From: a virus
Virus record (IMG/VR): IMGVR_UViG_3300025127_000251
Span: 1-25,216 of that record
Direction: 5' to 3' (one strand)
Length of the DNA stretch: 25,216 nucleotides
Shown here: piece by piece, positions 12,332-19,699 of the stretch
How the letters are laid out: each line of letters begins with the position of its first letter
Position numbering within the stretch: the stretch's first letter is position 1
The notes under the pieces: generated by a model
Databases searched by the model: none
What the model was told of the DNA's origin: nothing
Seen by the model: the letters and a program-made list of their open reading frames with translations, nothing else
Made by a program: the position numbers and the translations under genes

Positions 12332-13009
12332 ATGGGATTTGAAACTACTAACAAAATAATTAACGAAAGAATTAACGAAATATCACACAAACTAGTAAAT
12401 AAGACGATTACAGAAAGAGAAAGAAACGAATTAGCTGAATTAATATATCCTAAGCTAAGATATTATATTTGGCAATATTGCAAAAACAACGAGGATACAG
12501 ACGAGGCATTACAATGGACTCTAAAAAAGATATTTAATAATATTCCTAAATTTAATATCGAAAAAGGAAGATTTACCACTTGGATTTATACAATAGCTAG
12601 AAATGAGACTCTATTCTTCCTATATCAGAAAAAAAGAAGCCCAATTGCCAATTTAACTACTCTATATGGTAAAAAATCATCAGAAGGAGGCAAATCAAAT
12701 GACTCAAGTTGGTTAGAAAAAGATGGAAATCACTATATCGACGTATTTCATGAAGGAGAGCATGAGTTTGATAGGTTATATAATATGACGATTAGTGAAA
12801 TTCATGAAATAAAAGACGAGTTACTGAGAAACATAGCGGTAGATAAAATGCTAAAGAGGGAAAAGGTGAAAAACATAGCAATTAAATATAATATAAACGA
12901 AAATACCGTAAAAACAAAGTTAAGAAAAGTAAGGATAGACATAAAGGAGAAAGTATTAGATAGAGACCCTACTTTTAAAGAAACACTAAATCACATGTTT
13001 AATATATGA
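12332..13009 (+). CDS. ECF-like sigma-70 family RNA polymerase sigma factor
   Basis: This is a 225-residue two-region sigma factor. Region 2 (about 34-103) has the core-binding and melting helices: AELIYPKLRYYIWQYC, then EALQWTLKKIFNNIPKFN and GRFTTWIYTIARNETLFFLY, a typical ECF region 2.1-2.4. A linker rich in S, G and K (about 104-148) follows. Region 4 (about 155-207) has an HTH: EKVKNIAIKYNINENTVKTKLRKVR. Phage sigma factors of this kind redirect host polymerase to late genes, the job of gp55 in T4. It lies among packaging and structural genes, and the window carries many T4-late-like boxes that it could read; that link is inference. Its last four bases (ATGA) overlap the next gene. ATG at 12332 follows the previous stop by one base. 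Confidence 0.85.
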   Translation: MGFETTNKIINERINEISHKLVNKTITERERNELAELIYPKLRYYIWQYCKNNEDTDEALQWTLKKIFNNIPKFNIEKGRFTTWIYTIARNETLFFLYQKKRSPIANLTTLYGKKSSEGGKSNDSSWLEKDGNHYIDVFHEGEHEFDRLYNMTISEIHEIKDELLRNIAVDKMLKREKVKNIAIKYNINENTVKTKLRKVRIDIKEKVLDRDPTFKETLNHMFNI

Positions 13010-13564: not shown

Positions 13565-13882
13565 ATGAAAGAATTTATTAAAAATTGGTCTTGGCAAGTT
13601 TTGGCAATACTATTTTTTTTATTGTTTATGGGAAGGGGATGTACCGGTAAAAAAGTAGCAAAAACCAATAAATTAATCGAAGAAAACCACGTTCAACTAA
13701 CAAATACTGTAGATTCATTAACTAATAGAATAACTACGCTTGAAAAAACTTCTATTTCGTCTAAAGAAGCAAGAGATATAATGGAAAGTGTGATGTTAGA
13801 CTATTTAATATATGAAGACGATTTAGATAAAGGAAAAACCAGCCTATCTGAAATTAAAAATAAGATAGAGCAAAATGATTAG
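13565..13882 (+). CDS. Small membrane-anchored coiled-coil protein
   Basis: This is a 105-residue protein with an N-terminal hydrophobic segment (about 8-25, WSWQVLAILFFLLFMG) followed by RGC and a helical, coiled-coil-like stretch (about 35-100) with heptad-like spacing in KLIEENHVQLTNTVDSLTNR. Cys26 follows MGRG, which is a poor lipobox because of the Arg at -2, so it is more likely a plain membrane anchor than a lipoprotein. The topology (short N-terminus in, coiled coil outside) is that of an inner-membrane spanin (Rz type), though its acidic C-terminus is not diagnostic. It overlaps the next membrane protein by 8 bases and is probably co-translated with it. A lysis or envelope role is inference. 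Confidence 0.65.
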   Translation: MKEFIKNWSWQVLAILFFLLFMGRGCTGKKVAKTNKLIEENHVQLTNTVDSLTNRITTLEKTSISSKEARDIMESVMLDYLIYEDDLDKGKTSLSEIKNKIEQND

Positions 13883-14477
13883 TAGGTTAAGAAAGATAAT
13901 TTCTTGGCTTGGAGATAATCGAAACACCTTAATTAGAAATTCTTTTCTAATTCCAATACTCCTAGTCGTAATCATGTCAATAAGCCACGTGGTTAGTTGG
14001 TATGATTTAGGTAATCCTTTAAGCTGGGCAATATATCTATCAGTTGCGGTAGAATTCTTTGCACTCGCTTGTGTTTCAGCCGCTTCCATCAAAATAAGTA
14101 AGGGATCTATATGGTTTCTGTTTATAATGGTTACCCTAGTTCAAATAGTTGGTAATATCTACTTTGGATATAAAGAGATTATAGTAACTAGCGAAGCATT
14201 TGCCTCTTGGGTAGAGCTTATTTCCCCGTTATTTTTAGATTGGGAAATAGTAGATCATCGAAGATTTTTAGCAGCAATACAGGGAGGAACTCTTCCAATA
14301 ATGTCTCTTACTGCTCTTCACTTCTACATTCAATTCACTGAAAATTTACAAAAGAAAGAAGACTCTAAAGCTGATCTTCCAAAAGAAGAGAGCACTAAAG
14401 AGCAATCAATCAGCGATATAAAAAAGGAAATGGAAGAAAAGTTTCCGACTACTTCTACCGACTCAAAAAAAAAGTAG
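13875..14477 (+). CDS. Polytopic membrane protein (zero-frame product)
   Basis: This is a 200-residue protein with four or five membrane segments: about 23-43 (SFLIPILLVVIMSISHVVSW), 49-73, 77-99, a weaker one near 106-122, and 132-155. The cytoplasmic tail from 156 is highly charged (K/E/D/S rich) and ends DSKKK before TAG at 14475. I do not recognise the family; a holin or other envelope protein is possible, but at 200 residues with four to five segments it is large for common holins. It starts 8 bases inside the preceding membrane coiled-coil gene. The last codons are a run of nine A followed by G, a slippery site that would let ribosomes continue into the -1 frame (see the entries at 14468 and 14474). 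Confidence 0.75.
   Translation: MISRLRKIISWLGDNRNTLIRNSFLIPILLVVIMSISHVVSWYDLGNPLSWAIYLSVAVEFFALACVSAASIKISKGSIWFLFIMVTLVQIVGNIYFGYKEIIVTSEAFASWVELISPLFLDWEIVDHRRFLAAIQGGTLPIMSLTALHFYIQFTENLQKKEDSKADLPKEESTKEQSISDIKKEMEEKFPTTSTDSKKK
14468..14474 (+). promoter_or_regulatory. Slippery heptamer A AAA AAG for -1 ribosomal frameshifting
   Basis: In the frame of the membrane protein the codons are TCA AAA AAA AAG TAG, so A AAA AAG is exactly in X XXY YYZ register and immediately precedes the stop. This is the heptamer used by E. coli dnaX. Nine consecutive A (14465..14473) also allow transcriptional slippage. I see no convincing pseudoknot at the usual 5-9 base distance; a small hairpin TAGTA-GAAA-TACTA lies at 14517..14530, and GAGGAGG lies just downstream at 14486..14492. 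Confidence 0.6.
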
Positions 14478-14794
14478 AAAGAGTTGAGGAGGATTCCGAA
14501 ATAGGATTAGACGCCTTAGTAGAAATACTAGAAGAGGAAGAAAAAGAGAAAGAAGAGAAGAAGCCTGAAGGGAGAGTCAGTAAAGACCAGCAATTCTTAA
14601 TGGACAACGGAATTATTGGATCTAAAGAAGGATCTAAAGAGCCATTGATTCAACAGGCACTAAACCACTGGTTAATAACCAAAGGAGTGTATGATGGAGT
14701 TCCACAAAAAGAAGTATTAGATCACTTTAGAAAGTATAAAGCTAGTTTATCATCCAGAGTAGATAAAAAAGACGAAAAGAATTATCCTGGGTAA
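14474..14794 (+). CDS. -1 frame extension of the membrane protein (106 residues)
   Basis: After a -1 slip the next codon is GTA at 14474 and reading continues to TAA at 14792. This adds 106 residues, making a 306-residue product with the upstream frame. The added part begins VERVEEDSEIGLDALVEIL, runs through an E/K-rich linker, and ends in a compact helical domain (GSKEPLIQQALNHWLITKGVYDG and EVLDHFRKYKASL). The frame is open back to 14399. The first ATG in it is at 14600, which would give a 64-residue protein, but no ribosome-binding sequence or promoter box lies before it. The coding character of 14475..14599 would then be unexplained. Alternatives are a one-base assembly error in the A run that splits a single 306-residue gene, or an independent small gene from 14600. 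Confidence 0.6.
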   Translation, partial: VERVEEDSEIGLDALVEILEEEEKEKEEKKPEGRVSKDQQFLMDNGIIGSKEGSKEPLIQQALNHWLITKGVYDGVPQKEVLDHFRKYKASLSSRVDKKDEKNYPG

Positions 14795-14801
14795 ATAAAT
14801 A
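14794..14801 (+). promoter_or_regulatory. Late-type promoter box AATAAATA
   Basis: AATAAATA begins on the last base of the upstream stop codon (TAA at 14792..14794) and ends exactly 21 bases before the ATG at 14823. It starts a new transcription unit of three unknown genes that ends at the terminator near 16389. Confidence 0.55.
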
Positions 14802-14822
14802 AACAAAAGAATTGATTCTAAT

Positions 14823-15389
14823 ATGCCAACTTACGTAACAACAAATTCAAAAATACCTAAAATTAAGGATATTTGTGAAGATTGTGGAGATCATAGCGCG
14901 ATTCTACAATTAACAGACAGCAAAGAATTTGGAATATTTGAGCACGGGTCTGGATCCCAAATAGGATCTCTAGATGCGTCTGATTTTGCTTCACCGGTAG
15001 ATGGTCACACATGTACTCATCTTCATATAGCTGTAAATCAAGGAGAAGTAGAGCTATTTAATAATGGAGTAACTAATGTTGGATCTCCAGGAGTATTGGA
15101 AGAGGGAAAACTTTATGTCAGAGGAATAATGATAAAAATAGATTATCCTAAATTAGACACAAACGGTGAGGAAATAGATATAAAAGATAAAAATGTAGAG
15201 CTATGGATCGAAGATGTCGCATCACAGCAGTATAAGAAACATCCTATGCACAATCTATTTACTTTAATTACAAATCCTAAATCTAATGACCCAGATCAGC
15301 TGATAAATAAGATAAAGATAGTAAATCCTAATTCTCTATTTGAAGTGAAGGTAAATGGATTAATTACTTTTGGAAAAGCAGAAAAATAA
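14823..15389 (+). CDS. Unknown beta-rich protein, probably structural
   Basis: I do not recognise this 188-residue protein. It opens with a short CEDCGDH motif (about residues 18-24) that could bind a metal, followed by beta-strand-rich sequence. A second His/Cys cluster, DGHTCTHLHIAVNQGE, lies near 60-75; the two clusters could share a metal. The rest includes GVLEEGKLYVRGIMIKIDYP and a C-terminal FEVKVNGLITFGK segment. There is no signal peptide or membrane segment. It is the first gene after a late-type box and is followed 12 bases later by another beta-rich protein, so both are probably virion components made late. Confidence 0.7.
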   Translation: MPTYVTTNSKIPKIKDICEDCGDHSAILQLTDSKEFGIFEHGSGSQIGSLDASDFASPVDGHTCTHLHIAVNQGEVELFNNGVTNVGSPGVLEEGKLYVRGIMIKIDYPKLDTNGEEIDIKDKNVELWIEDVASQQYKKHPMHNLFTLITNPKSNDPDQLINKIKIVNPNSLFEVKVNGLITFGKAEK

Positions 15390-17659: not shown

Positions 17660-19699
17660 GTGGGAGTAAAGTTAGAGGCATTTGTTAAATTATTTGACGA
17701 AAAGTCAGGTGAGGCGATATCTAAACAAAAAGACCGGGTATCTAAAAAAGAGTCTCAGGTTGCTGAGTTTATGGAACTAAGAGCCACAGCTATTTCTGCT
17801 GCGACTGAATTTGGAACCGAAGAAGATCTTCAAATTATTTCAGAAACATTTCCTGAAGAAGGAGGAATGAATAATGATAAATTCAGAGTATATACAAATG
17901 AATTATTTGGAGGTCAATTTGAAGAAGAAATAAGAGCCCTGTTTAAAAGAAGAAACGCAAAGCCCCAACTTGACGGAGCTAAAAAATCTCTCGCTAGATA
18001 CGAAGCATTGAAGGATGCCGGAGGAGAATCTTGGTTTAAACAATATATGTCAGCAGTAGGGAGTAAGATAGCTGAAACTACATCTCTAGGTGCAATAACC
18101 GCTGATAAGCTATTTGAAGAATTCTTTCCAAAAGAGTTTGACGAAGACAATGCAGATGAAATTGCATATGTTTTAGACTATGACGCATATCCTGAGCCTC
18201 CTAGAGGGATACATAGCAGTATAGAATTATACGAAGCAGCAAGAGAATATGGAAATCCCTTAAACCGAACAGAAGAAAGCGTAGATGAAGAAGTCAAAGA
18301 AGTAGTAGTTCCAGAGCCACCTGTTGAGGCTCCGGTAGAGGAAAAAGTTCAAGACATATTAAATGAAGATGCTATTCAACAGGAGGAAGAAAAAGCACAG
18401 GACGAAGAAGAATTTGGGCCTATTGAACCTATAAACGACACCGAGGAAAAGCCAGTTGGAGATATTAATAAAATAATAGAACCCTCTATTAATACTGAAG
18501 AGGTTGTTCCAAGAAAAGTAGTTAGGATAGGAAGCAAGGGGGAAGACGTTGCGTTTTTACAGAAAGCTCTAGGAATAGAGTCAGATGGAAAGTTCGGGCC
18601 AATTACTAAAAAAGCAGTAATCGCGTTTCAAACAGCAAATGGCCTCGACCCAGATGGTATAGTAGGTCCTAAAACATGGTCAGCTTTAGGAAAAATAGAA
18701 AATGTTGAAACTTCTTCAAAAATAGAAGTAAGCACCCCGGAGGTACAAGCAATAGAGTCTCTACCTATAGAAGAAACTCAAGATGATGTAATAGAAGAAC
18801 CAACTCCCGCTCCTGCTCAAAATGTTATTAACGAAGCTGGAGATATAACAAATATCGAAAACACTACCGTCGAAGGTGAGACTTTAAATCAGGTTATTAA
18901 TGAGTCTCCTGTCACAGAAGGAGAACAGAGCCTAGGTGAAACATCATCAGTAGGAGAAGAGTCTTCTGTGTTTGATAACATCATGGCAATAAATAACGCA
19001 CCTGAAGGAGCTTCAGTTACGCCAGATCTTTCCTCCCCGGAAGTAGCCGGCGTGATAGAGTCCCAATCTGACGTATCTGAGTCTGGTTTGGATCAACCTA
19101 CTGAATCTCCATCAGGAGACAATATTTCTAACTTTAATTCTTTTGGAGATGTTATAAATGAAAATTTAAATCAATCTACAGTTAACCCTGGAATGAATGA
19201 AAGTATAACTAATTTTAATAGTATGCTTGAGTCTGGAGACGTGATAGGGGCAATCTCTAGTAAACTAGACTCCGTTACTAATAATATTAGTAACTCAGCA
19301 GAAAGCTTTGTATCTGGGGGAACCTCTGGGATCATGGAGAGTATAAAAGATACGTCTAGCGTTACTAATAACAATGCTATTGAAGTGAGCAAAGAGACGA
19401 CTAATCTAGATAAATCATTTGCACCGCTAGCTTCTTCTAATCAGATGTCTAGTACTGAAAATAAGTCAAGTTCAGAAGTAAATAACACATCTAGCTCTAC
19501 CAGCTCAACTGAAAATATAGATGGATCAGTTTCAACCGTAGATAATTCTACGACTAGCTCAAGTACGTCTGACGTAGATAATTCTAAATCAGCATCAATA
19601 TCAAACAATAGCTTTGATACCTCTGCTCTTGAACTAAGATTAAGAAGAATAGAAAATCTATTAGTCGGACCATTAGACGTAAAAATAATAGAATCATGA
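17660..19699 (+). CDS. Large peptidoglycan-binding virion protein; tape-measure or hub candidate
   Basis: This 679-residue protein starts at GTG. An N-terminal helical part (about 1-200) is followed by an acidic P/E-rich linker (205-285). A single PG_binding_1 domain lies at about 286-345: VRIGSKGEDVAFLQKALG, then SDGKFGPITKKAVIAFQ and PDGIVGPKTWSAL, the classic pattern with both D-G-x-x-G-P-x-T turns. From 350 to 650 the chain is low-complexity, rich in S, T, N, E. It ends in a short coiled coil (LELRLRRIENLLVGPLDVKI). No lysozyme or peptidase domain is visible. Position after the gp26-like hub gene and the length suggest the tail length determinant (gp29 place) or a central hub/needle protein that touches peptidoglycan. 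The binding domain is confident; the virion role is inference. Confidence 0.65.
   Translation: MGVKLEAFVKLFDEKSGEAISKQKDRVSKKESQVAEFMELRATAISAATEFGTEEDLQIISETFPEEGGMNNDKFRVYTNELFGGQFEEEIRALFKRRNAKPQLDGAKKSLARYEALKDAGGESWFKQYMSAVGSKIAETTSLGAITADKLFEEFFPKEFDEDNADEIAYVLDYDAYPEPPRGIHSSIELYEAAREYGNPLNRTEESVDEEVKEVVVPEPPVEAPVEEKVQDILNEDAIQQEEEKAQDEEEFGPIEPINDTEEKPVGDINKIIEPSINTEEVVPRKVVRIGSKGEDVAFLQKALGIESDGKFGPITKKAVIAFQTANGLDPDGIVGPKTWSALGKIENVETSSKIEVSTPEVQAIESLPIEETQDDVIEEPTPAPAQNVINEAGDITNIENTTVEGETLNQVINESPVTEGEQSLGETSSVGEESSVFDNIMAINNAPEGASVTPDLSSPEVAGVIESQSDVSESGLDQPTESPSGDNISNFNSFGDVINENLNQSTVNPGMNESITNFNSMLESGDVIGAISSKLDSVTNNISNSAESFVSGGTSGIMESIKDTSSVTNNNAIEVSKETTNLDKSFAPLASSNQMSSTENKSSSEVNNTSSSTSSTENIDGSVSTVDNSTTSSSTSDVDNSKSASISNNSFDTSALELRLRRIENLLVGPLDVKIIES

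What the first reader, a model, noticed from the sequence alone, without database searches (positions are those of the whole stretch)
14399..14794. Probable programmed -1 frameshift extending a phage membrane protein by 106 residues
The 200-residue membrane protein ends in AAA AAA AAG TAG. The dnaX-type heptamer A AAA AAG is in exact X XXY YYZ register right before the stop. The -1 frame is open from 14399 to 14794, lacks an ATG until 14600, and looks coding (E/K-rich linker plus a helical domain). Slipping would yield a 306-residue product with a new cytoplasmic domain. A ratio of anchored short and long forms would be a neat control device if this is a lysis or envelope protein. No classic stimulatory pseudoknot is visible, so transcriptional slippage on the A9 run or an assembly indel must also be considered.
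Basis: partly seen in the sequence, partly recalled or inferred. Interest (0 to 1): 0.75.

Follow-up and report, generated by a model that had tools for sequence, protein, structure and literature searches.

The report
Phage membrane gene with slippery A9
A phage membrane-protein gene ends at a run of nine A's beyond which its conserved tail domain continues in another reading frame, so one gene very probably makes a short and a long protein; relatives of this gene have acquired the same kind of slippery A-run at least three separate times.

Summary
A 200-codon membrane-protein gene (13875-14477) ends TCA AAA AAA AAG TAG, and the -1 frame is open to 14794. That frame is real coding sequence. 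An independent virus (L001, 77% identical membrane protein) has the same GACTCAAAAAAAAAGTAG, and its 130-codon -1 frame has no ATG, GTG, TTG or CTG. The extension has gene-like codon usage and is under purifying selection (dN/dS about 0.24 in its conserved part). The same small C-terminal domain is fused in frame in other relatives.

Among 77 non-redundant relatives, 73 show no split. Two further lineages (L035 with A9, L049 with A10) also carry the authentic C-terminus in the -1 frame just after an A-run; the tree requires three separate changes. Runs of nine or more A are strongly avoided in neighbouring genes (3 seen, 51 expected in 620 genes) but not in this gene (7 seen, 5.8 expected).

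The shared element is the A9-A10 run rather than the A_AAA_AAG heptamer, and no stimulatory structure was found. RNA-polymerase slippage (as in Citrobacter and Yersinia tssM) is favoured over ribosomal -1 frameshifting; both give the same 306-residue protein. The protein's function is unknown, and nothing supports lysis.

The parts
13875..14477 (+). Zero-frame ORF: 200-residue membrane protein (short form), four predicted membrane helices and a charged tail
   Evidence: family of more than 80 relatives; helices from the model of relative L034 and hydropathy
14465..14473 (+). A9 run, the proposed slippage site
   Evidence: sequence; identical in L001; only run of 8 or more A in the window's genes; two other split lineages have A9 and A10
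14468..14474 (+). Heptamer A_AAA_AAG in zero-frame register, possible ribosomal slip site
   Evidence: same heptamer in L001
14475..14477 (+). TAG stop of the short form, directly after the run; same position in L001
14474..14794 (+). -1 frame extension: 106 codons plus TAA; gives a 306-residue long form after a slip
   Evidence: open frame and codon usage, dN/dS, L001 homologue without ATG/GTG/TTG/CTG
14648..14749 (+). Conserved small helical domain inside the extension (IQQALNHWLITKGVYDGVPQKEVLDHFRKYKASL)
   Evidence: hhalign against in-frame domain of L034/L022/L023 E 6e-7 and against L035 -1 frame E 1.6e-6; model pLDDT about 90 over ext residues 61-90
14600..14602 (+). Only ATG in the extension; not conserved (Arg in L001), so unlikely to be a start

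Best explanation
One gene, two products. Unslipped expression gives the 200-residue membrane protein, which stops at the TAG right after the A9 run. A fraction of expression events moves into the -1 frame at the run and gives a 306-residue form with an acidic linker and a small helical domain, predicted to be cytoplasmic. The slip is most likely by RNA polymerase adding one A to the A9 run, so that some mRNAs carry A10 and are read straight through. Shown from sequence: the frames, the conserved coding -1 frame, the absence of a usual start codon in L001, in-frame fusion of the domain in relatives, and three separate origins at A9-A10 runs. Inferred: that slippage occurs in the cell, its level, that it is transcriptional, the topology, and that having both forms matters. 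The confidence given is for the whole statement including transcriptional slippage; for two products by some slippage at the run it is about 0.84.
For: Relative L001 is split at the identical site and its -1 frame has no ATG/GTG/TTG/CTG. dN/dS of the conserved part of the -1 frame is 0.24 and its codon usage is that of genes. The domain is fused in frame in L034, L022, L023. L035 (A9) and L049 (A10) carry the family's C-terminus in the -1 frame after the run; three changes are forced on the tree. Split genes occur only with runs of nine or more A: 4 of 8 against 0 of 69. Such runs are avoided in other genes (3 against 51 expected) but not here (7 against 5.8). Read through the shift, the distance to the next gene becomes normal. 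No RNA stimulator. Published: A9 is an efficient slippage site for bacterial RNA polymerase (PMC5009743, PMC1088944); Yersinia tssM3 slips 15-25% (PMC4256274); unstimulated A_AAA_AAG shifts about 0.3% in E. coli (PMC4066793).
Against: No reads, RNA or protein data. The window's own site is shared by one relative only. The A_AAA_AAG heptamer followed at once by a stop is also a plausible ribosomal signal, and A_AAA_AAA exists in L035 and L049. T-runs are not clearly avoided in the window, though power is low. L001's contig alone shows no avoidance of A-runs. The host and its polymerase are unknown.
Confidence: 0.57

Rival explanations
1. Programmed -1 ribosomal frameshifting at A_AAA_AAG, helped by the stop codon directly after it. 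The two proteins are the same; only the slipping machine differs.
For: The heptamer is in exact register in the window and L001, and A_AAA_AAG is among the best motifs in E. coli (PMC4066793). A minority of bacteria are thought to make dnaX tau by frameshifting with the gamma stop directly after the site (PMC5009743).
Against: No conserved stem-loop in the 143 nt downstream (pseudoknots not modelled) and no Shine-Dalgarno-like stretch just upstream. The motif without a stimulator gives about 0.3% in E. coli. In-frame A_AAA_AAG is not avoided elsewhere in the window. The other split lineages have A9 or A10 runs without A_AAA_AAG before a stop.
Confidence: 0.27
2. Sequencing or assembly error: the true run has ten A's and the gene is one continuous frame.
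For: Homopolymers are where indel errors occur; all split cases are at A-runs; relatives are mostly unsplit.
Against: The same nine A's appear in two viruses 77% identical, from separate assemblies, and L035/L036 agree across two samples. Such runs are almost absent from other genes of the same loci, whatever their true length.
Confidence: 0.07
3. DNA-level phase variation: replication slippage switches virions between A9 (short form) and A10 (long form).
For: Mononucleotide runs are typical contingency loci; the frame is restored by one extra A.
Against: Both the window and L001 consensus sequences show A9, and L035/L036 agree; no A10 version of the window/L001 site was found.
Confidence: 0.06
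4. The extension is an independent small gene starting at ATG14600, or the decaying remnant of a once longer gene.
For: A 64-codon ORF with ATG exists at 14600 in the window.
Against: L001 has no start codon in that frame, the ATG aligns with Arg, and conservation begins upstream of it (SKDxQFL). Purifying selection and gene-like codon use argue against decay.
Confidence: 0.03

Closest known systems
tssM1 of Citrobacter rodentium (A11) and tssM3 of Yersinia pseudotuberculosis (A9), transcriptional slippage (PMC4256274)
   Same: Inner-membrane protein made in two lengths because of a poly-A run; in tssM1 the stop follows the run and slippage restores the C-terminal domain; some relatives gain the long form by slippage, others lose it
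   Different: Phage gene, not homologous; here the stop is immediately after the run; slippage not measured here
dnaX gamma/tau: Thermus thermophilus (A9, transcriptional) and Chlorobium-type (stop directly after the shift site) (PMC5009743, PMC1088944)
   Same: Short and long form of one protein from a shift at A9 or A_AAA_AAG
   Different: Not related; E. coli dnaX has Shine-Dalgarno and stem-loop stimulators, none seen here; in Thermus the long form is the zero frame
Phage C-terminal extensions by frameshifting (gpG/GT tail chaperones; Ig-like domains on capsid or tail proteins) (PMC5009743)
   Same: Tailed-phage gene extended by a C-terminal domain in another frame; relatives may have the domain in frame
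   Different: Membrane protein near the terminase and sigma-factor genes, not recognised as a tail or capsid protein; A9 run rather than a stimulated ribosomal site

Membership tests
Transcriptional-slippage genes (poly-A or poly-T) | Uninterrupted run of about nine or more A or T in the coding sequence | tested here: met
   A9 in the window, L001 and L035, A10 in L049
Transcriptional-slippage genes (poly-A or poly-T) | A run length changed by one joins two conserved coding parts | tested here: met
   One extra A joins the membrane part to the conserved domain
Transcriptional-slippage genes (poly-A or poly-T) | Such runs avoided in other coding regions of the same genomes | tested here: met
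   3 against 51 expected in 620 other genes; not visible in L001's contig alone
Transcriptional-slippage genes (poly-A or poly-T) | mRNAs heterogeneous in run length | not testable with these tools
   No RNA data
Programmed -1 ribosomal frameshift (dnaX or IS type) | X_XXY_YYZ heptamer in zero-frame register at the overlap, conserved in relatives | tested here: inconclusive
   Met in the window and L001; the other split lineages offer only A_AAA_AAA
Programmed -1 ribosomal frameshift (dnaX or IS type) | Downstream stem-loop or pseudoknot, or upstream Shine-Dalgarno stimulator | tested here: not met
   Folding z-scores -1.44 to 0.48, no shared structure (pseudoknots not modelled); no SD-like stretch just upstream
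Tail assembly chaperone gpG/GT | Recognised tail-chaperone gene just before the tape-measure gene | tested here: not met
   Membrane protein with no described PHROG, flanked by a small membrane protein and an unknown gene
Holin or other lysis protein | Match to a lysis family or position in a lysis cassette | tested here: not met
   No Pfam or described PHROG match; no lysis gene recognised next to it

The most novel reading that the evidence does not exclude
A widespread phage membrane-protein family uses poly-A transcriptional slippage as an evolvable switch: different lineages independently place an A9-A10 run in the tail so that slippage either adds the C-terminal part (window/L001, L035, L049) or removes it (L011, where the long form is the zero frame), giving a set ratio of tailed and tailless forms.
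Probability: 0.3. Interest if true: 0.78.

Novelty: new member of a known kind. Interest (0 to 1): 0.62.

Why it matters
A domain behind a frameshift is easily missed by ordinary gene callers, so the long form is probably absent from annotations of such phages. Three separate origins in one family, in loci that otherwise avoid A9 runs, make a natural test of whether two lengths of one phage membrane protein are needed, and of whether DNA phages exploit RNA-polymerase slippage as bacteria do in tssM.

Tried and rejected
Chance open frame: rejected. Independent downstream gene: rejected. RNA stimulator: none found. The 18-nt identity at the site as evidence on its own: dropped, since 47 runs of five or more identical codons occur in ten gene pairs of the two viruses. 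Function by family or fold: no Pfam match and no described PHROG for the window protein, no PDB sequence hit, no significant Foldseek hit; the model of the in-frame relative L034 is only of moderate confidence (pTM 0.46). The A-run positions printed were wrongly offset and were replaced. A DNA search of phage records found nothing and a protein search found one distant hit. The 18-mer scan added no relative beyond L001's own contig. Searches seeded with the -1 extension, L049 and L035 found no new members. One genome contig, from a Prochlorococcus single cell, carries a relative.

Full report
Observation. The window holds a 200-codon ORF (13875-14477) ending TCA AAA AAA AAG TAG, with A9 at 14465-14473 and A_AAA_AAG at 14468-14474 in register; the -1 frame runs open to the TAA at 14792-14794. 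A 106-codon open frame has a chance probability of about 1-2e-4, and its codon usage is that of the window's genes, including the part before the only internal ATG at 14600; the other two forward frames score negative and carry 10-13 stops.

The -1 frame is a conserved coding sequence. The nearest relative found in IMG/VR, L001 (contig IMGVR_UViG_3300027779_000030), is 77% identical over the membrane protein and has the identical GACTCAAAAAAAAAGTAG followed by a 130-codon -1 frame, 47% identical to that of the window. In L001 that frame has no ATG, GTG, TTG or CTG, so ordinary initiation cannot make the domain; ATG14600 of the window aligns with an arginine. dN/dS is 0.06 for the membrane part, 0.53 for the variable tail, 0.24 for the conserved part of the -1 frame and 0.08 for the next gene. 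The exact 18-nt identity is not used as evidence by itself, because runs of identical codons of that length are frequent between these two viruses.

The domain belongs to the membrane protein. From two searches, 77 non-redundant genes of the family were compared; 75 are complete in the stored DNA, and no split was found outside the four described here. L034, L022 and L023 carry in frame a small domain (FREALNIWGQTKGSMDGISDEDIMDNYRSF in L034) that matches the window/L001 -1 product (hhalign E 6e-7; tblastn for L034 and L022).

Two more split lineages point to the A-run. In L035/L036 an A9 is followed by twelve zero-frame codons, while the -1 frame carries the same domain (E 1.6e-6 and 1.1e-5) and an ending, IDPNTGKFKK, seen in other relatives. 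In L049 an A10 is followed by a stop after three codons, while the -1 frame carries MSDKMKRILGK, also a usual ending, and its TGA overlaps the next ATG as in many relatives. Reading through the shift gives spacing to the next gene of 28, 7 and about 6 nt for the window, L001 and L035 and an ATGA overlap for L049, against 345, 396, 152 and 58 nt from the zero-frame stops and a family median of 16 nt. The tree of the membrane part (66 of the genes) forces three changes of state; L035 and L049 are long branches, so their exact places are unsure. Split genes occur only among those with a run of nine or more A (4 of 8 against 0 of 69; counting the window and L001 once, 3 of 7; Fisher P 5e-5 and 5e-4).

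Long A-runs are unusual here. With synonymous resampling that keeps each protein and each locus's codon usage, 620 other genes in these loci hold 3 runs of nine or more A against 51 expected, whereas 73 membrane-protein genes hold 7 against 5.8 (binomial P about 1e-5, or 7e-5 with the window and L001 counted once). In the window the site is the only run of eight or more A in 27 genes (8.0 expected), while A_AAA_AAG is not avoided (9 against 6.0). This avoidance is not visible in the 10.6 kb of genes on L001's contig alone. A relaxed, fast-evolving tail could also explain why runs are tolerated in this gene; it does not explain the conserved domain in the -1 frame.

Mechanism. An inserted A in the mRNA, or a -1 ribosomal slip, gives the same 306-residue protein. 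In both the window and L001 the third frame closes within 2-4 codons, so other slippage products would be the short form with minor changes. No downstream structure stands out from shuffles or is shared between the window and L001 (pseudoknots were not modelled), and nothing Shine-Dalgarno-like stands just upstream. Unstimulated A_AAA_AAG yields about 0.3% in E. coli (PMC4066793), whereas runs of nine A's or T's are efficient slippage sites for bacterial RNA polymerase (PMC5009743, PMC1088944), and Yersinia tssM3, whose run is A9, gives 15-25% (PMC4256274). I therefore favour polymerase slippage (about 0.57) over ribosomal frameshifting (about 0.27). A sigma-factor gene lies nearby (12332-13009), which suggests that a bacterial-type RNA polymerase transcribes these genes (inference). 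The host is unknown.

Function. The short form has a basic N-terminus and four predicted membrane helices, so the tail is predicted to be cytoplasmic (inference). No described family, solved structure or fold matches. The gene lies after the terminase and sigma-factor genes and before a gene of unknown function that is found next to it in many relatives. A working model is that tailless subunits dilute tailed ones in one complex, as both TssM forms are needed in Citrobacter; this is by analogy only.

Weak points. No reads, RNA or protein were available. L035 and L036 are the same virus from two samples; L049 is a single contig; only one relative shares the window's own site. The ends of fast-evolving tails were judged by eye as well as by hhalign, and the L049 ending is too short for a statistical match.

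Noticed in passing
L011 3479-3487 (also L013, L014, L016): A9 run right after the membrane part in the sister group of the window/L001 pair; here the long form is the zero frame and slippage would truncate it, the mirror image of the window.
   Followed up: partly
all family loci: Runs of nine or more A are strongly depleted in 620 neighbouring genes (3 against 51 expected); the three exceptions lie within the first 21 codons of their genes.
   Followed up: partly
window 14420-14426: A second in-register A_AAA_AAG that also leads into the open -1 frame; not present in L001.
   Followed up: partly
L053 4012-4600: The long frame after the membrane-protein gene has no ATG near its start, so the next gene may use a non-ATG start.
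   Followed up: no
L139 (QCKH01000004.1): A relative of the gene on an 84-kb contig filed under a Prochlorococcus single-cell genome, perhaps a phage contig; contains an A9 run at codon 260.
   Followed up: no
window 13565-13882: 105-residue protein with an N-terminal membrane helix and a coiled-coil-like rest, overlapping the start of the membrane-protein gene; possibly its partner.
   Followed up: no
window 17660-19699: 679-residue protein with an endolysin-like stretch (residues 278-366, PHROG endolysin matches) inside a much larger protein.
   Followed up: no
window 14700-14840: The end of the -1 frame and the spacer before the next gene are almost identical at DNA level in L001, more than amino-acid constraint needs; perhaps a regulatory element.
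   Followed up: no
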